Part shown: one piece after another, positions 4,287-61,643 of the stretch | How positions within the stretch are numbered: the first letter of the stretch is position 1 | Layout of the letters: each line of letters begins with the position of its first letter | IMG/VR virus record: IMGVR_UViG_3300037587_000923 | Span: 1 to 64,000 of that record | DNA from: a virus | DNA: 64,000 nucleotides | Direction: 5' to 3' (one strand) | Position numbers and translations under genes: made by a program | Notes under the pieces: generated by a model | What the model was told of the DNA's origin: nothing | Seen by the model: the letters and a program-made list of their open reading frames with translations, nothing else | The model's database searches: none

Positions 4287-4943
4287 ATGATGATTGAATT
4301 AAGAACAGGTGATTTTATAGATGCAAAAGTTATTACCGCAATAAGGATTGGCAAGGCGACGACAAAGGAGGAAAGAGAGTTCAATAAATTTTCTCATCCC
4401 CCTAGAGTTTTAGTAGATTTCAACAGAAGCAATATTATCTGCATAGATTTCAAGAGGCTGAAAGATGCCAAGGGCTATGCTATTGAGTTGCACGAAAAAG
4501 TGAAGGAGGAACTTGCTCAGATGGTGCAATCCGAGGCCAACGCTGAGAGGATAGTCACTTGCGTTAATAGCCATGATGAATTGCTGGCGGCCTGTAAGTA
4601 TGTTGTTAGATACCATAAAGAAAATGACAGCGGCGAGGGTGAGTTATTTGGGTTAGATTTTGTGACCACTTGTATCGCTGCCATAAGCAAAGCGGAAGGG
4701 AGCGCCCAAGGTGAGCATCCCCGAAAAAGTGATGGCAGTTATAAGGGTGACAGCAAGAAGATAAGCAATCTTGAGGTCGAGAACGGATACCTGGGAAACT
4801 TAAATAGCGAGTTGCTGGCGGCCTTGAAAAAATGTGTGGATGTAATATCAGAAGACGGCTTCCCTAACGGTACAACATTGGCCGAGGAGGATGCATTTAC
4901 GTCAGGCGAAAAAGCAATAAACAAAGCAGAAGGAGGTAAGTGA
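4287..4943 (+). CDS. Hypothetical protein with two repeated helical segments, 218 aa
   Basis: Starts at one of two adjacent ATGs after GAAGGAG. Residues about 1-90 form one domain. Segments around 95-140 and 172-215 resemble each other: each begins N-S-(H)-(D)-E-L-L-A-A and ends in a K/S-A-E-G motif. This implies an internal duplication of a helical unit. Function unknown. The stop overlaps the next ATG. Confidence 0.65.
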   Translation: MMIELRTGDFIDAKVITAIRIGKATTKEEREFNKFSHPPRVLVDFNRSNIICIDFKRLKDAKGYAIELHEKVKEELAQMVQSEANAERIVTCVNSHDELLAACKYVVRYHKENDSGEGELFGLDFVTTCIAAISKAEGSAQGEHPRKSDGSYKGDSKKISNLEVENGYLGNLNSELLAALKKCVDVISEDGFPNGTTLAEEDAFTSGEKAINKAEGGK

Positions 4944-5215
4944 TGTTGATATTCCTGGAGATGACAAACACACATACATACATGATCGACGGCGGCCTTT
5001 CGCTATTCGGTAGGCCGAAGTTCTCTTGTGATGTATATGAGGAAGAGTCAAGGAAGTTGTGCCATACAGACGTCGGCTTTATAGCCAAGGCGCTCCCCGC
5101 CAACAAGAAGCTGGCTAAAATCAGGAAGCTTGTAGATAAGTATGAGGGAAGGGTATTAAGCAAACTCGGTCGCATTGTATTTAAGCGTAGGTTGAAAAGG
5201 CTGGAACATAATTAA
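4943..5215 (+). CDS. Hypothetical protein, 90 aa
   Basis: ATG 4943 overlaps the preceding TGA and has AGGAGGTAAGTG in front. The product has a beta-rich N-terminus and a very basic C-terminus (FKRRLKRLEHN), suggesting nucleic-acid contact. Not recognised. Confidence 0.65.
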   Translation: MLIFLEMTNTHTYMIDGGLSLFGRPKFSCDVYEEESRKLCHTDVGFIAKALPANKKLAKIRKLVDKYEGRVLSKLGRIVFKRRLKRLEHN

Positions 5216-5250
5216 ATGGCGGGCTAGAAGCCCCCGGGAAGGAGAGAAAA

Positions 5251-5511
5251 ATGAAGTGGAGTTGGAGAACAAAAGCCCATGAAGGCGACAGAAGAAGGGT
5301 CAGGAAGTTTGCGTGGCTTCCAGTGAGGCTCGTGGATAACAGCATACTATGTCTCGAAAGGTACGTGGACAGACAGATATACACGCTCAATGGGATCTGG
5401 CCATATCCGAGGTGGTATTCCCAATATAAACTACAAAACTTTTCAGGTGAAATACCTGGAGAGAAGAGATGGATTGGCTGTAGTTTTCTCTGGAACGGCA
5501 TATGCGATTAG
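5251..5511 (+). CDS. Basic aromatic-rich hypothetical protein, 86 aa
   Basis: A GGGC/GCCC hairpin (5221-5233) precedes the GGAAGGAG ribosome binding site, the recurring leader form of this genome. The protein is rich in Trp, Arg and Tyr and looks beta-rich; no family is recognised. Confidence 0.6.
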   Translation: MKWSWRTKAHEGDRRRVRKFAWLPVRLVDNSILCLERYVDRQIYTLNGIWPYPRWYSQYKLQNFSGEIPGEKRWIGCSFLWNGICD

Positions 5512-5524
5512 GAGAGGAGAAAAG

Positions 5525-5800
5525 ATGAGCACAAGAAGAACACACGATAAGATCATAGAGAAAGCCCTGAAGGAAGGTATTAATATCAACGAGACAGTCT
5601 TCAGGGTGTCAGTGTATGACATACTCTCCATTGCAGGTGATAGGCTGGGAGACAAGGCCCTCGAAGCTGACCTCGAAGATCTGGTAAGAGAGGTGAGGAG
5701 AGGGGTGGAATCCGGCCTTGAATGGAGTGAGGTTGTTGAGGTGGCTATTGATTATTACTGGGAAGGTAAGCAGAAGCCTAATAAGCCTGGAGGCGAGTGA
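5525..5800 (+). CDS. Small acidic helical protein, 91 aa
   Basis: ATG 5525 has AGGAGAGGAGAA directly upstream. An open frame extends further 5' but that part overlaps the neighbouring gene and lacks a start signal. The protein is predicted helical with alternating charge. Unknown role. Confidence 0.7.
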   Translation: MSTRRTHDKIIEKALKEGININETVFRVSVYDILSIAGDRLGDKALEADLEDLVREVRRGVESGLEWSEVVEVAIDYYWEGKQKPNKPGGE

Positions 5801-6150
5801 TGTCTGACTACTGCCCTACCAGCAAGGAGTTTGTAAGATCCGTGCAGATAGAAGCCCTGAGGACTGGTGATTATCCCCGAGGGACTCAGATAATGTATAA
5901 GCCTAGCCACTCGAAGACTGAAGATGATTATGAATTTGGTTTTATCACGAGCTACTCCCCAAACGGAAATGTCTTCTGTAGATTTTTTCATAGGACTTGG
6001 AGTGGAGTCGGGTCAGTAACGCCTTCGAGAACTACGGCTAATAGCGAATCATGCAGAGCAGATGACCTGACTATACATACGAGCCGGCCACAAGAGATTG
6101 TCGATGAACTCCTGAGGAAGATAGATAATAACGAATCACTGTATGATTAA
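5800..6150 (+). CDS. Hypothetical protein, 116 aa
   Basis: ATG overlaps the previous TGA after GGAGGCG. The central part (about 35-75) is beta-rich (FGFITSYSPNGNVFCRFF), like a small SH3-type fold. The C-terminal part is helical. Unknown function. Confidence 0.65.
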   Translation: MSDYCPTSKEFVRSVQIEALRTGDYPRGTQIMYKPSHSKTEDDYEFGFITSYSPNGNVFCRFFHRTWSGVGSVTPSRTTANSESCRADDLTIHTSRPQEIVDELLRKIDNNESLYD

Positions 6151-6166
6151 TTTCAGCATGCCGAAA
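6151..6166. repeat. GCATGC palindrome, copy 3
   Basis: TTTCAGCATGCCGAAA begins one base after a stop codon and lies just before the GGAGG of the gene at 6185. A TATGAT hexamer is nearby at about 6141, but no matching -35 is visible. Confidence 0.75.
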
Positions 6167-6184
6167 GGATGGAGGTAAAGGGAA

Positions 6185-6652
6185 ATGAGCCAGATAACAA
6201 ATAATGATGATGTAATTGACAGTAGGGACATTATAGCAAGAATTGACGAGCTGGAAGATATGTTTCAGGTATGTCAAAATTGTGGCGAAGATTTACCGAT
6301 AGGTGTGGATCATAGAGACAGCACATATCCTGGCCCAAATGGGGAACTTATAGTTGATTGCCCTAAATGTGACGGAATAATAATGTCAGAGAATGAAAGG
6401 GAGGAACTGGGTCATTTAGACGCAATAAAAGACGAATGCGAGGACTACGGCGACTGGAAATATGGCGTAACTCTTATTAATGATTTTTACTTTACCGAGT
6501 ATTGTATGGAATTATTAAAGGGTATCGGGGATTTACCACAAGATATACCTGGTTACATTGCCATAGACGAAGACCAAACAGCGGAGAATCTAAAGGTTGA
6601 TTACGCAACGGTTGACTTTGATGGTGTTGATTATTTTGTAAGAAATTGTTAA
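6185..6652 (+). CDS. Conserved phage protein with N-terminal zinc ribbon, 155 aa
   Basis: Residues about 28-62 carry CxxC and CPKC pairs (a zinc ribbon). The second half (about 70-155, with YGVTLINDFYFTEYCMELL and a VDFDGVDYFVR end) matches a widespread protein of unknown function in phages and mobile elements of Gram-negative bacteria, sometimes near antirestriction genes. Acidic overall. A role in modulating host defence is possible but unproven. Confidence 0.7.
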   Translation: MSQITNNDDVIDSRDIIARIDELEDMFQVCQNCGEDLPIGVDHRDSTYPGPNGELIVDCPKCDGIIMSENEREELGHLDAIKDECEDYGDWKYGVTLINDFYFTEYCMELLKGIGDLPQDIPGYIAIDEDQTAENLKVDYATVDFDGVDYFVRNC

Positions 6653-6681
6653 TTAAATCCAACAAGAAAGGGGAAGTGAAA

Positions 6682-7557
6682 ATGAGGCACACACTAGCGA
6701 ATCACCAGGAGGTAGCACATTTCTGGGGCAATGAAGTTCAAGAAGATGGCGCAAGCGGCAATATGTTTTTTAAGAATAGGACAATCTTTTCTTACGGCTC
6801 ACATTTTGCCATTGCAAAACACTATGATAATAACTTAATACTTTTCACTAATAGAGGATACAGCAACTCCACATCAGCACATATTTCATATACTAAGCGA
6901 GCTATCCCTTGCGACAAGAACATCCTCTATTGCCATAACCCTGAAAGACCAGCAGATATCCAAAATCATGAAACGGCCATTCGGGGAATAGAAGACAATC
7001 TTAAAAAGGCAGTCAGGGCGCGGGAACGTAAACAGGAATACTTAAGTAATGCTGAATACGCATACAATCAGATTATACAATTAATAAAGATTTTTAAAAT
7101 CAAGGGCTGGAAGATACCAAAATACGACTTTACCACACCGGAAACAATCACAGAGTATATAAAAGAACGTGAAAGAAAGGCAGAGGCTAAACGAAAAAGG
7201 CAACTTGCAAAACAAAAAAAGCAAGACGCGCTTGACAGAGTCCTTTTCTTGGAAGATGTAGTAAAGTGGAAAAGCGGCGAAATAAAATCCGCTTACGATG
7301 TACAACACCGGCGCTTCGCAAACGAAGTTGACTACTGCCGGATTGATGGCGATATAGTAGAGAGCATGAGAAGCGCAAACGCCCCACTTAAAGCAGTAAA
7401 GGTGGTCTTGAGACGTATATTACAGGGAAAGCCAGTCAAAGGGGTTGAGCTGGGGCATTATACTATTATCAGCTATGATGGAGAGTCTTTAAAAATAGGC
7501 TGCCATGATTTTCCACAATCAGAAATTGACTGGCTTATCAGGCAACTGGGTATCTAG
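6682..7557 (+). CDS. Conserved phage hypothetical protein with coiled coil, 291 aa
   Basis: ATG 6682 has AAAGGGGAAGTG upstream. Residues about 1-90 (SYGSHFAIAKH, HISYTKRAIP) resemble the N-terminal domain of a protein common in large phages. Residues about 110-195 form a charged coiled coil. The C-terminal 70 residues are globular. Function is not known for the family. Confidence 0.7.
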   Translation: MRHTLANHQEVAHFWGNEVQEDGASGNMFFKNRTIFSYGSHFAIAKHYDNNLILFTNRGYSNSTSAHISYTKRAIPCDKNILYCHNPERPADIQNHETAIRGIEDNLKKAVRARERKQEYLSNAEYAYNQIIQLIKIFKIKGWKIPKYDFTTPETITEYIKERERKAEAKRKRQLAKQKKQDALDRVLFLEDVVKWKSGEIKSAYDVQHRRFANEVDYCRIDGDIVESMRSANAPLKAVKVVLRRILQGKPVKGVELGHYTIISYDGESLKIGCHDFPQSEIDWLIRQLGI

Positions 7558-12662: not shown

Positions 12663-13487
12663 ATGAAGGACGAGATGTACACTAGGTGGCCAATTAAAAA
12701 GAGGAGGGGAGGTGTCAGGTGGATAGAGTCTCCGAATGATGACCTAAAGGCAAGACAGAGAGAGTCTATTGATAAGTTGGAAGAGAAACTGCAGGTATCG
12801 CCATTCACACATGGCTTTGCAAGATATAAAAATATCGCAACTATGGCAATGTCACATGTGGGGAAAGAGTATGTAGGCTCGATTGACATTGCGGATTACT
12901 TCCCGAGCATTTCGCTGGAGAAGTTTCTCGATAAGGTCAAGACTGTACCGAAAGAGGAGCTGTGGGATCACTTCCATGATTTCTGTGATGGCAAGGGTAA
13001 CAGATTGCCTCAGGGAGCTCCGGGTTCCCCGCTCATATCCAATGCTTATCTGTTCCGGCTAGACTGGAGGATGGCATGGCAGTGTCACGAGAGAGGATGC
13101 GATTTCACGAGATATGCAGATGATCTCACGATATCAGGGCCGAACAGGGATGATGTTGTTGTCCTGCTCAAGATAGCCAGTGAGTTGATGAGAGTATACT
13201 ATGGGCTCAAGACCAACAAGAAGAAGACTAAGATTGTTCATAGGTCTCGAAGAATGTTGGTTTGTGGCGTAGTAGTAAACGAGCGCCTCAACCTTAAAAG
13301 GGAAGACAGGAAACGACTAAGGGCCATCAAGCATCAAGAGATGTTGAAAAATGGCAAGCTATCCTTGGAAACTAAGGGCAAGGTTGCTTTCGAGGCGATG
13401 ATACGAGAGAACACAAAAACAACTCACTCCTCCAGGGAAATAATAGACTCAGTTAAAGTCACGAAGGAAATGGCGGCTGTAAAATGA
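12663..13487 (+). CDS. Retron-type reverse transcriptase, 274 aa
   Basis: Motif order is that of retron RTs: IKKRRGGVRWI (11-21), HGF (50-52), a variant of the NAxxH motif (MAMSH, 61-65), catalytic DIADYFPSI (75-83), QGAPGSPLISN (117-127), YADD (151-154) and VCGVVVN (200-206) in the place of the retron VTG motif. There is no maturase domain, and the QGxxxSP box excludes a DGR enzyme. At 274 aa it is slightly shorter than typical retron RTs (about 300-320 aa). ATG follows GGGAAGGAG, which is preceded by a GGCA/TGCC hairpin. The stop overlaps the next ATG (ATGA). The enzyme should reverse-transcribe a linked RNA. Confidence 0.88.
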   Translation: MKDEMYTRWPIKKRRGGVRWIESPNDDLKARQRESIDKLEEKLQVSPFTHGFARYKNIATMAMSHVGKEYVGSIDIADYFPSISLEKFLDKVKTVPKEELWDHFHDFCDGKGNRLPQGAPGSPLISNAYLFRLDWRMAWQCHERGCDFTRYADDLTISGPNRDDVVVLLKIASELMRVYYGLKTNKKKTKIVHRSRRMLVCGVVVNERLNLKREDRKRLRAIKHQEMLKNGKLSLETKGKVAFEAMIRENTKTTHSSREIIDSVKVTKEMAAVK

Positions 13488-15438: not shown

Positions 15439-15450
15439 TAAGTTAGACAG

Positions 15451-15518
15451 ATCAACATAGCGCTTGAGGCAAGGGGAACGAGCGTAGCGAGTTTCCTACT
15501 TGAGCGAATTGGTTAGCC
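15451..15518. repeat. attC-like imperfect palindrome
   Basis: The site runs from ATCAAC to GTTAGCC with arms GCTTGAGG and CTTGAGCG and an inner GGAAC/GTTTCC hairpin. It is nearly the same sequence as the site at 57,787-57,845. It stands directly before the gene at 15,539. Its half-sites read like the reverse complement of the well-known aadA-type attC. Confidence 0.65.
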
Positions 15519-15538
15519 TGTTTTCAAAAGGAGAAATA

Positions 15539-15961
15539 ATGAAAAAAATAGTCGCAATAGTATTTCAGGATGGTAAGCCATTTTCAGTAGTTACTGACGA
15601 CAGTTGGATATTCGACGTCGAACTTTGTAAAGCCGAGGACACTCTGTATTACCATGCCACCGGGAATTACGGGATTGATGGCAACTCAGTTTTTTTGGAG
15701 GGTGGCCGCACAAATGATTACTGGCTGGCAAAGCGGTTTCAGCCAAAAGTTAACCCTGGCGAGGGTATGGGTAACAGATTAGAGCATGTAAATCCGAGAT
15801 GGCTTTGGGGCCTAGAGTCATGGGGCTGCGAGTCTGACACGGTGTACTGTAGTATCTGTGCCGACCATATCCCCACCGACGACGTAGGTGAAGATGTTTG
15901 TGACCACATCCGCTGGGATGCAGAGGCGGGCTGGTGGGCTGGCGAAGGGTATGAAGGCTAA
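15539..15961 (+). CDS. Cassette-borne hypothetical protein, 140 aa
   Basis: ATG follows AAAAGGAGAAATA. Beta-rich N-terminus. Residues about 105-130 contain CSIC and CDH, a possible zinc site. The gene lies between two attC-like palindromes, and its TAA is part of the downstream TAAC. The 11-bp sequence AGATCAACATA and its inverse flank the unit, so it looks like a single inserted cassette. Confidence 0.7.
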   Translation: MKKIVAIVFQDGKPFSVVTDDSWIFDVELCKAEDTLYYHATGNYGIDGNSVFLEGGRTNDYWLAKRFQPKVNPGEGMGNRLEHVNPRWLWGLESWGCESDTVYCSICADHIPTDDVGEDVCDHIRWDAEAGWWAGEGYEG

Positions 15962-15994
15962 CACATGATCGCATAGCGCATCATCTGGTTATGT
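15959..15994. repeat. Short attC-like palindrome after the isolated cassette
   Basis: TAAC at 15,959 and GTTATG ending at about 15,993 enclose an imperfect ATGAT/ATCAT hairpin. It is shorter than the other sites. Together with the flanking inverted repeat it could be the original site into which the 15,539 cassette was inserted. Confidence 0.5.
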
Positions 15995-16020
15995 TGATCT
16001 ATCGGATAGAAATAAAGGAG

Positions 16021-16847: not shown

Positions 16848-17849
16848 ATGGAATCAAACAAGAAGATACAGGTAGATCAGTCAACAGCGGTAGTCATGGC
16901 TGGCATAAATATTCTGTCTGAGAAGCTCAATGTAATAGACAAAAAGGTAACAGCTAAAATTCCTGAGTGGAATACCTCCGAGGCTGTAATAGTTTTCCGG
17001 AACCATCTCGAGAAGAAGCACAAGAAGCCGAGGAACTTCAAGCATATCCTTGAGTTGTTCAGTCAGGAGTTTGGAGGCAGGAATATAGCCGTGATCAATG
17101 CAATCGAGATAGAAGAGTTCCTTTCGAGTAACTGGGGAGATAGTAAGAACTCTACCAAGAACGCCAGGCTTACCCAGGTCTCCATGCTTTTCAGCTTTGC
17201 GATTAAGGAGATGCAGAGGATGGGTAAACCAAGGTTTCATAATCCATGTGACCTCATAGACAAGGCCAAGCATGTGGCACCCAAAGAGAATGTATATATC
17301 GAGCCAGGCTTGATGGTTAAGTTCCTCGGGTCATTCGATAAGGCACATCACTGGCTCTGGGTAGCGATAGGACTGAGTGCCGGCTTAAGGATAAGTGAGA
17401 TATTAAACCTAAGGCCGATGGATGTAGATGGCAGGATCCTCACACTGCTAAACACTAAGGGTGGCAGAGAGCGAGAATATGCCGTTATACCGGTCGAAGT
17501 CTCCGAGAGGCTACAGAGGTATATCTATTCCCTAGAAGTCCAGGGAGAGGATATGATCTGGGCCAGCACGAATGTAAATACTCCATACAAGGTATTCAAA
17601 AAGCATGGAGATAGGCTTGGTCTTAATATCGGAACTCATTCATTGAGGAAATGGTGCGCTACTACATATGATCGGGCAGGCGATACCGGAATGGTTCGAT
17701 ACGTTCTTCGACATGCATCCGGAAAGGGCATGACTTCTCTGGAATCTCGATATATAGCTCCTTACGACAATGCTACAGCATGTAGCGTTCAAGATAAAAT
17801 CACAGTCCCATTATTATTTGAAGACCATTATAGATGGGGGTCATTATGA
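16848..17849 (+). CDS. Tyrosine recombinase (phage integrase family), 333 aa
   Basis: The catalytic set is complete: R181 in GLSAGLRISE, K204, H264-x-x-R267 (HSLRKW), H289 and nucleophile Y302 (SRYIAP). The N-terminal SAM-like core-binding region covers about 42-125. It would cut and join DNA at att sites. The extra helix that marks integron integrases is not visible between the K and H-x-x-R boxes. It lies 850 bp from an attC-like cassette and is translationally coupled to a row of zinc-ribbon paralogs. Its natural site cannot be told. Confidence 0.9.
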   Translation: MESNKKIQVDQSTAVVMAGINILSEKLNVIDKKVTAKIPEWNTSEAVIVFRNHLEKKHKKPRNFKHILELFSQEFGGRNIAVINAIEIEEFLSSNWGDSKNSTKNARLTQVSMLFSFAIKEMQRMGKPRFHNPCDLIDKAKHVAPKENVYIEPGLMVKFLGSFDKAHHWLWVAIGLSAGLRISEILNLRPMDVDGRILTLLNTKGGREREYAVIPVEVSERLQRYIYSLEVQGEDMIWASTNVNTPYKVFKKHGDRLGLNIGTHSLRKWCATTYDRAGDTGMVRYVLRHASGKGMTSLESRYIAPYDNATACSVQDKITVPLLFEDHYRWGSL

Positions 17850-56312: not shown

Positions 56313-57448
56313 TGGAAAAAAATAAGGGTCTACAGCTAGTAGATAAAAAAGAAATGGCAGGGGGTGGTGGCTTTTCTCTTGCTCCAAGTAATCTAGGGGA
56401 GGCAATGGAGTTCGCCAAGATGATGGCTAATACAGACATGGTCCCTCGAGACTACGCTGGAAAACCTGCCAACATAATGATAGCTGTCCAGATGGGAGCC
56501 GAGATCGGCCTTAAACCGATGCAAAGCTTACAGAACATATCTGTGATCAACGGCAGGCCTAGCGTGTGGGGAGACACCGCAATTGCATTAGTCAGGGTTC
56601 ACCCTGACTGTGAGTCCATCAATGAATACCTTCTCGATAAAAATGGTAATAAGACCACTGGTACCGATTACGACACTGCAGTTTGTGTAGTGAAGAGGGC
56701 TGGCCAAGACGAAGAGATTAGGACTTTCAGCCTCGCTGACGCCAAAAAAGCCAGACTTATTGGTAAAACAGGGCCATGGTCTACTCACGAGAAGAGGATG
56801 TTGCAGCTGCGAGCTAGAGGTTTTGCTCTCCGTGATGTTTTTCCTGATGCATTAAAAGGCCTAGCGATTGCAGAGGAAGCTCAAGACTTACCACCTCGAG
56901 ACATCACTCCTGCCAGGGAAGAAGTATTGACTCCCGAGTTCGATGTGCCCGTCATAGACACCGGCCGTAGTGTTATGGTTGAGGAGGTTGCCAATGAAGA
57001 AGTAGTTGATGCCGCCACTGGAGAGATCACTGAGGGGTCAGAGCAGAAGTCTGAGTCTGCCAAGATCGAGGATGACGACGCTCTCGATGCAACCGTTACC
57101 GGCATGATCGATCGTATTGAGAATATCGGTAATAAGTTCGAGGGGGATAACTGGCTGACCAAACATAGCTCTGAAATCAACAAGCTTCCGGAAGATGCCA
57201 AGGAAGTTGTTATGAACAACTACAAGGGGAAAATGGAAGATCTGGCATCGGAGGGTGTGGCCAAGGAAGAGGGATCAAAAGGTGACGAAGACTCCCTTGT
57301 TCTTGACTACATAAAGAAGCTGGAAAAACCTAAGAGCCTGGAGGAGCTTGACGCTATATTTGACGAGGCCCAGAATAAAATAAAGACCGGCGCAAAGGTT
57401 GTCGCCCTTCGTAAGGTTAGAGACAAGAAGGCACAGGATTTTAAGTAA
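56312..57448 (+). CDS. recT: RecT-family single-strand annealing protein, 378 aa
   Basis: Residues about 25-190 (AKMMANTDMVPRDYAGKPAN, MGAEIGLKPMQSLQNISVIN, WSTHEKRMLQLRARGFALRD) match RecT annealing proteins. The C-terminal half is acidic and disordered with a helical end. It anneals single strands during phage recombination, paired with the upstream exonuclease. Its stop overlaps the first attC-like site of the cassette array. Confidence 0.9.
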   Translation: MEKNKGLQLVDKKEMAGGGGFSLAPSNLGEAMEFAKMMANTDMVPRDYAGKPANIMIAVQMGAEIGLKPMQSLQNISVINGRPSVWGDTAIALVRVHPDCESINEYLLDKNGNKTTGTDYDTAVCVVKRAGQDEEIRTFSLADAKKARLIGKTGPWSTHEKRMLQLRARGFALRDVFPDALKGLAIAEEAQDLPPRDITPAREEVLTPEFDVPVIDTGRSVMVEEVANEEVVDAATGEITEGSEQKSESAKIEDDDALDATVTGMIDRIENIGNKFEGDNWLTKHSSEINKLPEDAKEVVMNNYKGKMEDLASEGVAKEEGSKGDEDSLVLDYIKKLEKPKSLEELDAIFDEAQNKIKTGAKVVALRKVRDKKAQDFK

Positions 57449-57571
57449 CATTGGCATTGAGGGGCCGCCGGATTGATGGCAACCTCTTTCAAAAACTGAG
57501 TGGCGGGGAAAGCCGACTCCTGTAAAAATCAGACAGATGTTTAGGCGGTCACTCTCGAATAACTGGTTATG
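57446..57571. repeat. attC-like site 1 (start of cassette array)
   Basis: TAAC at 57,446 and GTTATG at 57,566 flank an imperfect stem (GAGGGGCCGCC with GGCGGTCACTC). At about 126 nt it is the longest of the sites. It begins inside the recT stop codon. Confidence 0.5.
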
Positions 57572-57588
57572 AAACTTGGAGGTAGAAA

Positions 57589-57789
57589 ATGAACACTACA
57601 GAGCAACGCATGGCGGCAATATTTAACGAGTGGGCAAAACGTTATTCTGAGAACCCTGACGCTTTCGGGCCTATATTTGATGATGAGGGGAAGCCGGTCA
57701 CCGACTATGGAGTAAGATGCGCACGCTATTTCAAAAAGGTAGCCGATGAAATGGACAGCAAGGGGATATTACCCGCACCTGTTTCATAA
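57589..57789 (+). CDS. Cassette protein 1, 66 aa
   Basis: ATG follows GGAGGTAGAAA. A small acidic helical protein (NEWAKRYSENPDAFGPI). Its TAA is the TAA of the next TAAC. Not recognised. Confidence 0.65.
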   Translation: MNTTEQRMAAIFNEWAKRYSENPDAFGPIFDDEGKPVTDYGVRCARYFKKVADEMDSKGILPAPVS

Positions 57790-57845
57790 CGCTTGAGGTA
57801 AGCGGAACGAGCGTAGCGAGTTTCCCACTTGAGCGAATTGTTATG
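57787..57845. repeat. attC-like site 2
   Basis: TAACGCTTGAGG and CTTGAGCGAATTGTTATG arms with an inner GGAAC/GTTTCC hairpin. Read in reverse it closely matches the aadA-type attC arms. Nearly the same core as the site at 15,451. Confidence 0.7.
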
Positions 57846-57876
57846 TTGAAACTTTTAACTATAGGAGATGCTGATA

Positions 57877-58200
57877 ATGACACCTGAAATTAATAAAAAA
57901 TATTTAATTACGACCGATAATTGGTTTTTGGCACCTGATGGGAATAGTTATCGCGCAGTATTTGGAACTGTCATAGGAATACAAACAGACGAAAATACAT
58001 TGGGAGTTAAAACGAATAGAAGCTCGACAAACTGGTATGTTGCTATCGGGAATATGTTGATCGCTGGTTGTCAAATACATTATGTAATCCAAGTGGATGA
58101 GGTAAGCTTTAACGCACCTAATAGAGAAATAGAGCACGATGGTAAATTAACTAAAGAGAGGGAAAGCATAACAAGAATATATAATGCCGATGAAACATAA
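57877..58200 (+). CDS. Cassette protein 2, 107 aa
   Basis: ATG 57,877 has TAGGAG ten bases upstream. Beta-rich protein; no family recognised. The TAA overlaps the next TAAC. Confidence 0.65.
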   Translation: MTPEINKKYLITTDNWFLAPDGNSYRAVFGTVIGIQTDENTLGVKTNRSSTNWYVAIGNMLIAGCQIHYVIQVDEVSFNAPNREIEHDGKLTKERESITRIYNADET

Positions 58201-58391
58201 CGATTGAACTAAACTGCGGCGAAAGGAGAATATCATGAAATGGGAATGTGGAAATTGTGGACACAAGGTTACTGAAAAAGAAACTGTTGAAGGTGGGAAT
58301 AAAGAATGGAAATGCCCTAAATGTTCTAATATCAATAAGCATGAAAAAAAGAAAAGCGCGTTGAGCCGTCAGATTTGAGTGACTGGGTTAG
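58198..58391. repeat. attC-like site 3 with an ORF in its loop
   Basis: The left half (TAACGATTGAACT..., CTGCGGC) and right half (GCCGTCAG..., GGGTTAG) pair with bulges, with a 47-codon frame between them. It is either a very long attC loop or a cassette inserted into a site. Confidence 0.4.
58235..58378 (+). CDS. Zinc-ribbon cassette protein 3, 47 aa
   Basis: AAAGGAGAATATC precedes the ATG. CGNCGH and CPKC form a zinc ribbon. The frame lies within the loop of an attC-like site. Confidence 0.65.
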   Translation: MKWECGNCGHKVTEKETVEGGNKEWKCPKCSNINKHEKKKSALSRQI

Positions 58392-58416
58392 GCCGCACGA
58401 ACCTTAGGAGGTAAGT

Positions 58417-58605
58417 TTGGAAAAGCCAGAATATTTAAAAGATGAACATTTAAAATATCTAAATGAGCTGAAAGAAACCAAAATGGTACCCATGTTTGGA
58501 GCAGCATCTACCTTGAGATTATATTATGATTATCTGACAAAGGAGCAAGCCAGGAAAATATTAGCCTATTGGATAGACACATTTCAAGAGAGACATGCGG
58601 CATAA
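58417..58605 (+). CDS. Cassette protein 4, 62 aa
   Basis: TTG start with AGGAGGTAAGT in front. A helical soluble protein (LRLYYDYLTKEQARKILAYW). The TAA joins a degenerate TAAC half-site. No family recognised. Confidence 0.6.
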   Translation: MEKPEYLKDEHLKYLNELKETKMVPMFGAASTLRLYYDYLTKEQARKILAYWIDTFQERHAA

Positions 58606-58646
58606 CAATTGAACTGTGCCGCTTGCAAAATTAAAGGAGAAAACCT

Positions 58647-58961
58647 ATGAGTGGAGTTATAGACTTACCCTGTGGATGCACAATGGATGATTATTCAGGA
58701 CTAGCACTTTATGTTTGCCAAGCGTGTAGAGAGCGCAAGAAGAGGCAAGAGACTTCAGAACGCGACAGCGTTTTGCAAGTCGGAACCAGTGATGGGTTAG
58801 ACTGCCCCCTTTGTGCGAAGATGGGGCCGAAAGAAGTTTATGAAAAGTGGGGCTTTGATTATGAAGCAAGATATAAAGACACATGCAAAGCGCATAGACC
58901 GCTAATGCTTGAGAGAATGGAAGATGGACTGAACAAGTTGAAAGAGCTTCTGGCAGACTAA
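58647..58961 (+). CDS. Cassette protein 5, zinc-binding, 104 aa
   Basis: ATG is preceded by AAAGGAGAAAACCT. It holds PCGC (about 8-11), CQAC and CPLC knuckles, more than one zinc site possible. Its TAA begins attC-like site 4. Confidence 0.65.
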   Translation: MSGVIDLPCGCTMDDYSGLALYVCQACRERKKRQETSERDSVLQVGTSDGLDCPLCAKMGPKEVYEKWGFDYEARYKDTCKAHRPLMLERMEDGLNKLKELLAD

Positions 58962-59044
58962 CAAGACAAGCTAAGGGGCTTGAACGAACGCAGTGAGAGA
59001 AAGTCCAAGGAGTGAAACGACTGTCTTTGAGCGCCTGGGTTATG
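58959..59044. repeat. attC-like site 4
   Basis: TAACAAGACAAGC to GGGTTATG, with CTTTGAGCGCC on the right arm. An exact copy is at 61,287-61,372. The left TAAC is the boundary of the duplicated unit. Confidence 0.7.
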
Positions 59045-59081
59045 TTTTTTGATATGACAGGGCAAAAAATCGGAGGTTATT

Positions 59082-59315
59082 ATGGACGACATAGCAATAA
59101 ATGAAGGTCAAAAGATATTTGAAGAAAGATATAAAAAGGGATTTCCAAAAGTGATATTTGGGGAGACGCACATCTCAATTCCTTGCACTTGCGACGATGG
59201 CGGTGGGCCTATTCACTGGGCAACAGTGCAGAACAACATAAGATCGATAGAAGAACATTTCCGGCATGAGGAGACTTTGCGTGAATTAAGGAAAATGGAT
59301 AGGGACAAAACATAA
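59082..59315 (+). CDS. Duplicated cassette protein, first copy, 77 aa
   Basis: ATG follows CGGAGGTTATT. A CTCD motif and HxxxxT segments (CTCDDGGGPIHW) are visible; no family recognised. An identical gene lies at 61,410. Confidence 0.7.
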   Translation: MDDIAINEGQKIFEERYKKGFPKVIFGETHISIPCTCDDGGGPIHWATVQNNIRSIEEHFRHEETLRELRKMDRDKT

Positions 59316-59399
59316 CGTTGCCCTTAACCCGCACCTGAGCCAAGTTCCTATGAAATTGGAGACACCTTTAGGTGTCGGTGGTTCAAGGGCTTGGTTATA
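59313..59399. repeat. attC-like site 5
   Basis: GCCCTTAACC on the left pairs with GGTTCAAGGGC on the right, leaving one unpaired C, and an inner perfect GACACC/GGTGTC hairpin. This is the extrahelical-base pattern of attC, but with the extra base on the right arm. Confidence 0.75.
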
Positions 59400-59421
59400 A
59401 AACTTATCTTACGGAGGACTT

Positions 59422-59589
59422 ATGAAAGCTGAAATAAAGAAAGATGGATTTATTTGGATAACCGCTGAAGACGCAACAGAGGCATTCGCGCTTAATCATT
59501 TAGTGCCAGTTGGTGACAAGGCGGAGGTGTGTAAAGAGTGCAACCAGGTTAAAATACCCGTTGTTATAGATGCGAGCGTATTAAACTAG
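59422..59589 (+). CDS. Cassette protein 6, 55 aa
   Basis: ATG follows CGGAGGACTT. A small protein with CKEC late in the sequence. No family recognised. TAG stop 10 bases before the next TAAC. Confidence 0.6.
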   Translation: MKAEIKKDGFIWITAEDATEAFALNHLVPVGDKAEVCKECNQVKIPVVIDASVLN

Positions 59590-59598
59590 GCAGTTTTA

Positions 59599-59655
59599 TA
59601 ACGAACAAGTTAAAGGGACGCTGGAACAGCGTTCCGCTTTGAACGCCTGGTTCTG
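59599..59655. repeat. attC-like site 6
   Basis: GTTAAAG on the left pairs with CTTTGAAC (extra C) on the right. A perfect ACGCTG/CAGCGT hairpin forms the tip. Confidence 0.75.
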
Positions 59656-59681
59656 AGGCGTGTAACTTAAAAGGAGAAGAC

Positions 59682-59813
59682 ATGAGACTGATAATTTTAA
59701 CACTTGGAATATGGGCATTGATGCATGTTGGATTTGACTTCGACTGGATGAGGGTTTTATGGACTATGGGGCTGACTGTTTATGCCGCATGGTATGATTT
59801 AATAAAGCCTTAG
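59682..59813 (+). CDS. Cassette membrane protein, 43 aa
   Basis: AAAAGGAGAAGAC precedes the ATG. Two short hydrophobic segments separated by FDFDWMR. TAG stop adjoins the next site. Confidence 0.6.
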   Translation: MRLIILTLGIWALMHVGFDFDWMRVLWTMGLTVYAAWYDLIKP

Positions 59814-59869
59814 AACGCCTGAGGTAAGCGGAAGCCGGAACGGCTTTCCGACTTGAGCGATTTGTTAGT
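59812..59869. repeat. attC-like site 7
   Basis: GAACGCCTGAGGTAAG and CTTGAGCGATTTGTTAG arms with a CGGAAGCC/GGCTTTCCG inner stem (one bulged T). Related to sites 2 and 15,451. Confidence 0.75.
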
Positions 59870-59900
59870 TTGGATCTTGACTTTAAGGAGAGGCGACTAA

Positions 59901-60752
59901 ATGGCAAGAATTAAGTATACACAATGTATGGTAAGAGACTGCGAAAAGCCCCATCTATCTAAAGGCTTCTGTAATAGGCATTATCAGCAAATGTGGAAGC
60001 ATGGACGCATTCTGCCTGATGCGGTGCCTATTGAAGACTTGGCCGGAGAGTTATGGGCTGACATTGAAGAGGCTGAAGGGTATCAAGTTAGCAATATGGG
60101 GCGTGTTAAGTCTCTTGTGGGCCGTGGCGGGTTAATAAAGCCACAGATCGAACAAAGGGGGCACATGAATACCCCTAAGAAGCGTGTCTATTTAGACAGG
60201 AGGGCAACAAGAGGCTGGGTTAAATTCTTGTATGTTCACCTAGAGGTAGCCAGGGCCTTTATCCCTAATAAGTTTGACAGCGCCCACACGACCTTTAAAA
60301 ACGGGGATGCCTTAGACTGCCGTGCTGATAATATCGAATGGTGGTGGGAGAATCCACCTGTAGATGATGATGGGTTGATTCAGTTTAGAAAGTCGGTTCA
60401 TTCTGAATTAGGGAAAAAGGTTCTGGCCTTTATTGATGGCAACCAGTCTGCCCTCGATAGTTTCGTAATGCAAAAGACTGACAAGATGAGGAAAATACTA
60501 CAGAGTAAATTCAAAGGGGTCTGCGGAGACAATGTAAACGAAGCGGTGCACGTTGCTTTCAGTGAAGGCATGAGAGACATTAAACGCGGATTGCTTAGGG
60601 CAGACACACATATAGAAAACTGGTTCCTTCGGATTGCAGAGAACCAACTATTGGATGATATTAAAAAGAACAAGCACACTACATCTCAATGGGGCTGCAA
60701 TGGTAATGGCGACGAGTTCGACAAATTTGATTTAATGGCGGCAACAAACTAA
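59901..60752 (+). CDS. NUMOD4-HNH protein fused to sigma region-2-like domain, 283 aa
   Basis: Residues about 9-35 hold a zinc motif (CEKPHLSKGFCNRHY). A NUMOD4 motif (EAEGYQVSNMGRVKSL, about 55-70) and an HNH-like region (VARAFIPN, DNIEW) follow. The last about 120 residues end in WFLRIAENQLLDDIKKNK, which resembles region 2 of ECF sigma factors (WL-R-IA-N-L-D). A fusion of a homing-type nuclease and a sigma-like domain is unusual. It lies in a cassette. The C-terminal part lacks region 4. Confidence 0.7.
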   Translation: MARIKYTQCMVRDCEKPHLSKGFCNRHYQQMWKHGRILPDAVPIEDLAGELWADIEEAEGYQVSNMGRVKSLVGRGGLIKPQIEQRGHMNTPKKRVYLDRRATRGWVKFLYVHLEVARAFIPNKFDSAHTTFKNGDALDCRADNIEWWWENPPVDDDGLIQFRKSVHSELGKKVLAFIDGNQSALDSFVMQKTDKMRKILQSKFKGVCGDNVNEAVHVAFSEGMRDIKRGLLRADTHIENWFLRIAENQLLDDIKKNKHTTSQWGCNGNGDEFDKFDLMAATN

Positions 60753-60832
60753 CTATGAATTAACCAGTGGCCCGACCAAGCCACACTGAAAACGGACACG
60801 CCTCTTGCCATCTGGTTGAATGGCGTGTTATA
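60750..60832. repeat. attC-like site 8
   Basis: The left arm ATTAACCAGTGGC pairs with the right arm GCCATCTGGTTGAAT, leaving two single unpaired bases on the right. TAAC overlaps the stop of the gene before it, and GTTATA ends the site. Confidence 0.75.
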
Positions 60833-60857
60833 AATTTTGCATTAGGAGGGTAATTAG

Positions 60858-61289
60858 ATGAGAGGATATGCGTGTATAGGGTTGGATAACCCCAAGGCGG
60901 CAGTTAACGTAGGATCGGCTTTGAGAGCCGCAGGGTGCTATGGGGCTGCAATGGTGGCTATGACGGGCAACCGGAGCGGAAAGACACCCACTGACACCAT
61001 GAAGCAGTATCGACATAGGCCGTTGTTGCGCGTTGAAAATTTGAAAGATGTTATTCCTTATGACTGCGTGCCTGTGGCAGTTGATTTGATAGAGGGAGCT
61101 ATTCCATTGCCAGAGTATGAACACCCCGAAAGAGCCTTTTATATCTTCGGGGCTGAAGATGCCACCCTGGGCGAAAGAGTGACATCTTGGTGCAGGGACA
61201 CTATATATATTCCCACTAACGGTTGCATGAATCTAGCAGCAACGGTTAATGTGGTGCTATATGACCGGCTTGTTAAGCAAAATTTATAA
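60858..61289 (+). CDS. SPOUT (TrmH/SpoU-type) RNA 2'-O-methyltransferase, 143 aa
   Basis: The three SpoU motifs are present: NVGSALRAAGCYGAA (about 17-31), FYIFGAEDATLGERV (about 94-108) and IPTNGCMNLAATVNVVLYDR (about 117-136), forming the deep-knot SAM site. It should methylate ribose in tRNA or rRNA. It is as short as TrmL but not assigned to a specific substrate. Carried as a cassette. Confidence 0.85.
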   Translation: MRGYACIGLDNPKAAVNVGSALRAAGCYGAAMVAMTGNRSGKTPTDTMKQYRHRPLLRVENLKDVIPYDCVPVAVDLIEGAIPLPEYEHPERAFYIFGAEDATLGERVTSWCRDTIYIPTNGCMNLAATVNVVLYDRLVKQNL

Positions 61290-61372
61290 CAAGACAAGCT
61301 AAGGGGCTTGAACGAACGCAGTGAGAGAAAGTCCAAGGAGTGAAACGACTGTCTTTGAGCGCCTGGGTTATG
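61287..61372. repeat. attC-like site 9 (copy of site 4)
   Basis: Identical to 58,959-59,044. It begins inside the methyltransferase stop codon. Confidence 0.9.
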
Positions 61373-61409
61373 TTTTTTGATATGACAGGGCAAAAAATCG
61401 GAGGTTATT

Positions 61410-61643
61410 ATGGACGACATAGCAATAAATGAAGGTCAAAAGATATTTGAAGAAAGATATAAAAAGGGATTTCCAAAAGTGATATTTGGGGAGACGCACA
61501 TCTCAATTCCTTGCACTTGCGACGATGGCGGTGGGCCTATTCACTGGGCAACAGTGCAGAACAACATAAGATCGATAGAAGAACATTTCCGGCATGAGGA
61601 GACTTTGCGTGAATTAAGGAAAATGGATAGGGACAAAACATAA
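61410..61643 (+). CDS. Duplicated cassette protein, second copy, 77 aa
   Basis: Identical at DNA and protein level to 59,082-59,315, indicating very recent duplication. The TAA joins TAACGATTGAC, a half-site with no visible right partner, the array end. Confidence 0.75.
   Translation: MDDIAINEGQKIFEERYKKGFPKVIFGETHISIPCTCDDGGGPIHWATVQNNIRSIEEHFRHEETLRELRKMDRDKT

What the first reader, a model, noticed from the sequence alone, without database searches (positions are those of the whole stretch)
15449..16000. Isolated cassette inserted into a palindromic site near a tyrosine recombinase
The gene at 15,539 is preceded by an attC-like site nearly identical in its core to the one at 57,787, 42 kb away. 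AGATCAACATA at 15,449 and its inverse at 15,990 flank the whole unit. Removing the unit at AA/C restores one palindromic site, so this looks like a cassette caught in a secondary site. A tyrosine recombinase lies 850 bp away, transcribed away from the cassette as intI genes are from their arrays.
Basis: partly seen in the sequence, partly recalled or inferred. Interest (0 to 1): 0.7.

Follow-up and report, generated by a model that had tools for sequence, protein, structure and literature searches.

The report
Phage integron cassettes with reversed genes
A bacterial virus carries integron-style movable gene cassettes, one of them caught alone in a short hairpin site, and in this and most other viruses checked the genes point the opposite way round, relative to their recombination site, from those in bacteria.

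Summary
The unit at 15461-15961 is an integron-type gene cassette: an attC site plus one gene (140 aa, no known relatives). It lies inside a short, attC-like palindrome. The cut at AA|C fits the known chemistry, and an identical duplicated cassette in the main array (58962-59315 and 61290-61643) has the same ends. The unit is not alone: a ten-cassette array fills 57449-61643, and two more arrays lie outside the window in the same 82-kb phage record. The nearby recombinase is not an integron integrase: it scores 26-27 bits against a cut-off of 265, lacks the IntI-specific insert, and groups with Streptococcus phage recombinases (support 99/99). The unexpected result is polarity. Every resolvable attC in the main array has its extrahelical bases on the opposite arm from class 1 integrons, so all cassette genes are reversed relative to attC. 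With one orientation caller, 23 viral contigs without IntI gave 44 reversed and 9 canonical cassettes, against 12 and 104 in four Xanthomonadaceae chromosomal arrays. Most likely the cassettes are moved by a host IntI acting in trans. No empty site was found in a related genome.

The parts
15449..15460 (.). Left half of the target palindrome (AGATCAACATAG), a short attC-like site split by the insertion
   Evidence: pairs with 15990-16000
15461..15961 (.). Inserted cassette unit (attC plus gene), 501 bp, ends AA|C
   Evidence: same end type as the duplicated unit
15459..15514 (-). attC site of the inserted cassette; extrahelical bases on the minus-strand left arm
   Evidence: model R1 53.3 bits on the minus strand (a training site)
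15539..15961 (+). Cassette gene, 140 aa, no family match
15962..16003 (.). Right part of the target palindrome; joined to 15449-15460 it folds at -13.3 kcal/mol
16848..17849 (+). Phage tyrosine recombinase, 333 aa, not IntI
57449..61643 (+). Main array of ten cassette units; genes +, attC sites -
57447..57568 (-). attC S0, directly at the RecT stop codon
57788..57842 (-). attC S2, 93% identical to the attC at 15456
58199..58389 (-). attC S3; a 47-aa zinc-ribbon-like ORF (58235-58378) lies in its loop
58604..58798 (-). attC S4, long loop containing the start of ORF 58647-58961
58962..59315 (.). Duplicated cassette unit, copy 1 (attC plus 77-aa gene)
   Evidence: 100% identity over 359 bp with copy 2; ends AA|C
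59314..59396 (-). attC S6
59600..59652 (-). attC S7
59814..59866 (-). attC S8
59901..60752 (+). Cassette gene with a NUMOD4 motif (homing-endonuclease-like)
   Evidence: Pfam E = 4.9e-8
60751..60829 (-). attC S9
60858..61289 (+). Cassette gene, SpoU rRNA methylase family
   Evidence: Pfam E = 1.4e-14
61290..61643 (.). Duplicated cassette unit, copy 2

Best explanation
The unit at 15461-15961 is an integron-type gene cassette. A recombinase that handles folded single-stranded attC sites joined the cassette's attC to the R box of a short attC-like palindrome, at the minus-strand G|C, which is AA|C on the plus strand at the other end. The same thing happened repeatedly in this phage, giving a ten-cassette array behind recT and further cassettes behind the 788-aa protein gene at 66.7-69.0 kb (probably the large terminase, not tested) and at about 73 kb. 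attC polarity is reversed relative to the genes. Each mobile unit is therefore [attC + downstream gene], and the recombinogenic attC strand is the coding strand. The enzyme is most likely a host IntI acting in trans, because the record encodes none. The inserted unit now has G|CTATG in place of G|TTATG as its R box, which would make it hard to excise and may explain why it stands alone. Shown: attC anatomy, polarity, unit ends, absence of IntI in the record. Inferred: the enzyme, the order of events, the trapping.
For: Arms of the resolvable array sites show the class 1 attC pattern (3 bp, extrahelical base, 3-4 bp, extrahelical base) on the mirror arm (control L011). The attC model finds the phage sites on the minus strand and held-out class 1 sites on the gene strand. 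Bouvier 2009 (PMC2727003): inverting the extrahelical bases moves the cut to the R'' box, which predicts AA|C here. The 100% identical duplicated unit runs from AA|C to AA|C as attC + gene, while its downstream attC sites differ. The isolated attC is 93% identical to an array attC. The joined flanks form a hairpin matched by 2 of 2000 random joins. IntI is absent from the record, and arrays occur in IntI-free contigs. Phage attC sites have been recombined by IntI1 in the laboratory (PMC9892861).
Against: No empty site was found in a relative. The R box at the isolated unit is GCTATG, not GTTATG. The host is unknown, so a host integron is not shown. The record is linear and may be incomplete. 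Excising the other way (at + G|TT) also restores a palindromic site (-13.0 kcal/mol).
Confidence: 0.7

Rival explanations
1. The phage's own tyrosine recombinase P0001 inserts the cassettes, forming an integron-like system that is not IntI-based.
For: P0001 is the only tyrosine recombinase in the record, it lies about 0.9 kb from the isolated unit, and its catalytic residues look complete in the alignment.
Against: It lacks the IntI insertion, groups with the SM1/Javan290 phage recombinases, and similar reversed arrays occur in records with no PF00589 protein, including the complete phage MW202573.
Confidence: 0.12
2. The unit was inserted the other way: its attC is the downstream hairpin (15956-15996), inserted into a resident attC at 15449 by a cut at + G|TT.
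For: Removing 15512-15990 also leaves a paired site, -13.0 kcal/mol, and all cut boxes would then be GTT.
Against: The duplicated unit shows that attC travels with the gene downstream of it, and the extrahelical bases predict the AA|C cut.
Confidence: 0.12
3. The arrays arrived in the phage by homologous or illegitimate recombination with a bacterial cassette array, and no site-specific step took place in the phage.
For: Qi 2023 suggests such routes for phage cassette clusters, and some sites are half-sites.
Against: Chromosomal arrays have the opposite gene polarity (104 to 12); insertion ends fall at AA|C in separate loci; there is a clean duplicated unit.
Confidence: 0.12
4. The hairpins are only transcription terminators or chance palindromes between small phage genes.
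For: Short genes with hairpins between them are common in phages (general knowledge).
Against: The extrahelical-base pattern, model scores up to 68 bits, and near-identical sites in unrelated contigs.
Confidence: 0.03

Closest known systems
Phage-borne CALINs (clusters of attC sites lacking an integrase; Qi et al. 2023, PMC9892861)
   Same: attC cassette clusters in phages without IntI; tested phage sites are recombined by IntI1
   Different: Here the cassettes lie at several separate places in one phage and all array genes are reversed relative to attC. The passages read report same-direction arrays and divergent attC directions in one phage, not this rule. The paper's MW202573 shows the reversal too, while its TJE1 does not.
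Class 1 and chromosomal integron cassettes
   Same: attC boxes, spacers, extrahelical bases, and gene-flanking complementary ends
   Different: Gene polarity relative to attC is opposite; no intI found, and no attI recognised by eye
attG insertions (Loot et al. 2024, known here only by title through PMC11023631)
   Same: Cassettes placed at sites outside an integron
   Different: Here the target is an attC-like palindrome in a phage; the attG rules could not be checked

Membership tests
Integron gene cassette | attC with two pairs of inverted boxes and extrahelical bases on one arm | tested here: met
Integron gene cassette | Start of the cassette complementary to the attC inner box (circular form closes) | tested here: met
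   Nine complementary arm pairs frame genes of the main array, 9-10 of 10 bases; isolated unit AGGCTAAC / GTTAGCCT
Integron gene cassette | Moves as a unit with fixed ends | tested here: met
   Duplicated unit, AA|C at both ends
Integron gene cassette | Gene reads towards its attC (usual polarity) | tested here: not met
   Reversed at all callable sites of the array; usual but not strictly defining, since 12 of 116 callable chromosomal cassettes were also called reversed
CALIN | At least two attC sites and no integron integrase nearby | tested here: met
Complete integron | intI gene | tested here: not met
   Best match 26.3 bits against a cut-off of 265
Integron integrase (IntI) | IntI-specific insertion before the HxxR motif and placement in the IntI clade | tested here: not met
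attC-type insertion at a secondary site | Empty site present in relatives | tested here: inconclusive
   No close relative found
Integron gene cassette | Recombination by IntI | not testable with these tools
   Needs an assay

The most novel reading that the evidence does not exclude
Phages keep their own pool of integron-type cassettes with gene polarity reversed relative to attC. Reversal puts the recombinogenic attC strand on the coding strand, which is the lagging-strand template when genes run with the replication fork. That would favour folding and shuffling, and would keep phage cassettes silent if captured in a bacterial attI, separating the phage and bacterial cassette pools.
Probability: 0.35. 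Interest if true: 0.85.

Novelty: new variant of a known kind. Interest (0 to 1): 0.72.

Why it matters
Integron cassettes are usually seen as bacterial parts read from one promoter. A large, polarised phage pool carrying phage-type genes (a Mom modification protein, Dam methylase, a dATP/dGTP pyrophosphohydrolase) would be a separate route of gene shuffling that uses host integrases. It would also give a simple sequence test, the position of the extrahelical base relative to the gene, for telling phage cassettes from bacterial ones. The strand hypothesis can be tested directly.

Tried and rejected
P0001 as IntI: rejected. Close relatives by protein: none in IMG/VR for P0001, the 122-aa upstream gene or the 788-aa protein; RecT gave only 25-28% identity hits. 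Exact search for the attC core in IMG/VR: none. DNA similarity of the region in phages: none; in plasmids only a 62-bp match inside an RNA methyltransferase gene. A link between reversed arrays and a reverse transcriptase: only 3 of 26 records have one, rejected. Diversity-generating retroelement with the 12.6-kb reverse transcriptase: no template/variable repeat pair found within the limits used. Cassette genes as defence genes: no PADLOC hits except weak homing-endonuclease matches. Two scripts failed on coordinates or an empty table, and some calls failed on wrong coordinates or terms.

Full report
What is there. The window is bases 1-64000 of an 82,045-bp virus record with RecT, head protease and tail proteins. 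At 15461-15961 an attC-like site is followed by a 140-aa gene, and the unit is flanked by AGATCAACATA and its inverse. The attC core is 93% identical to the one at 57.8 kb.

It is a cassette. Integron cassettes start and end with complementary boxes. A scan for GTT..AAC complementary arms in the whole record found 42 pairs, against a mean of 27 and a maximum of 35 in 20 Markov shuffles, and nine of the pairs frame the genes of the main array. The isolated unit has AGGCTAAC against GTTAGCCT. Aligning the two arms of each site shows the known attC pattern of paired triplets interrupted by extrahelical bases, as in aadA1, aacC1 and aac(6')-Ib of a class 1 integron. A covariance model built from five phage and three class 1 sites recovers held-out class 1 sites and sites in the published phage TJE1.

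Polarity. In class 1 integrons the extrahelical bases lie on the arm next to the gene's stop codon. In this phage, at every main-array site where they resolve, they lie on the other arm, so attC points minus while the genes point plus. Two kinds of check support this. Experiment elsewhere: inverting the extrahelical bases moves the cut to the opposite box (PMC2727003), which predicts the plus-strand AA|C. Sequence here: the unit 58962-59315 is repeated at 61290-61643 with 100% identity, from AA|C to AA|C; it carries the attC upstream of the gene, while the attC sites downstream differ.

The empty site. Cutting the isolated unit out at AA|C restores a 51-bp palindrome that itself looks like a minimal attC with its extrahelical base on the same arm. 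The hairpin energy is reached by 2 of 2000 random joins. No relative with the empty site was found, so this stays an inference. The R box left at the insertion is GCTATG rather than GTTATG, which may have locked the unit in place (inference).

More cassettes. The main array holds ten units and begins exactly at the RecT stop codon. Outside the window, further attC-like sites lie at about 69.0-70.4 kb and 73.3-74.2 kb, with one 47-bp site present twice.

The recombinase. P0001 is the only PF00589 protein in the record. It scores 26-27 bits on the integron integrase model (cut-off 265), lacks the insert that separates IntI from other tyrosine recombinases, and groups with the SM1 and Javan290 phage recombinases with 99/99 support, while IntI sequences form their own clade at 100/100. 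Its branch is long.

How general is the reversal. Two attC half-site patterns that know nothing of gene direction were scanned in IMG/VR, and arrays were called with the model. Using one simple ORF caller, 23 viral records without IntI gave 44 reversed and 9 canonical cassettes; 17 were mostly reversed, 4 mostly canonical, 2 tied. Four Xanthomonadaceae chromosomal arrays gave 104 canonical and 12 reversed with the same caller. The virus record with an IntI and a long array, G014, was mostly canonical. Fisher's p is 1e-20, but cassettes in one array are not independent and the caller is rough: it called one class 1 and one TJE1 segment wrongly against the annotation. Reversed ORFs include clear Mom (1e-29), dATP/dGTP pyrophosphohydrolase (4e-25), Dam (6e-11) and, in the window, SpoU (1e-14) proteins, so they are genes. 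Several of the contigs carry terminase, portal or helicase genes.

Why reversed. With canonical cassettes the recombinogenic strand is the template strand; with reversed ones it is the coding strand. PMC11023631 reports that chromosomal arrays keep the recombinogenic strand on the leading-strand template, and that inverting the array makes it much more active. GC skew in this phage is positive over the plus-strand gene blocks and negative over the minus block, as expected if genes run with replication, though transcription alone can give this. Reversal would then place the folding strand on the lagging template. This is a hypothesis. A second possibility is that reversed cassettes are silent in a bacterial attI. 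A third is chance fixation in one phage pool.

Novelty. Phage cassette clusters are known (PMC9892861). I found no paper in the held library on reversed polarity; the library lacks many subscription papers and preprints. Limits: no host, no empty site, linear contigs, rough gene calls, no experiment.

Noticed in passing
window 12663-13487: A 274-aa reverse transcriptase of retron/unknown-group type (PADLOC RT_XIII 3e-57, RT_II-A, RT_X) in the phage; no diversity-generating repeat pair was found.
   Followed up: partly
window 58199-58389 and 58604-58798: Two attC sites have very long loops that contain an ORF or its start (47-aa zinc-ribbon-like protein; ORF 58647-58961), so genes seem to live inside attC hairpins.
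   Followed up: partly
L005 4001-8147 of the reverse complement, chiefly 4880-6700: A second IMG/VR phage contig (40.8 kb, no tyrosine recombinase) has a string of attC-like left halves each followed by a ribosome site and a small gene, as if right halves had been lost.
   Followed up: partly
L003 8305-8351 and 11796-11842: An identical 47-bp short attC-like site occurs twice, at 70.3 and 73.8 kb, with a decayed third copy near 74.16 kb.
   Followed up: partly
L003 12904-14019: A TnpB/IS605-OrfB-like gene just after the third cassette locus (judged by eye from the sequence).
   Followed up: no
G000 66188-66240 (L003 4188-4240): A solo short attC-like hairpin (AGCAAATAACCAGACGATGATTCC..GGGTTATTTGC) whose extrahelical base lies on the opposite arm from the array sites.
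   Followed up: no
L018 8641-8979: A reversed phage cassette encodes a dATP/dGTP pyrophosphohydrolase (PF04447, 4e-25), an enzyme type linked to phages with modified adenine.
   Followed up: no
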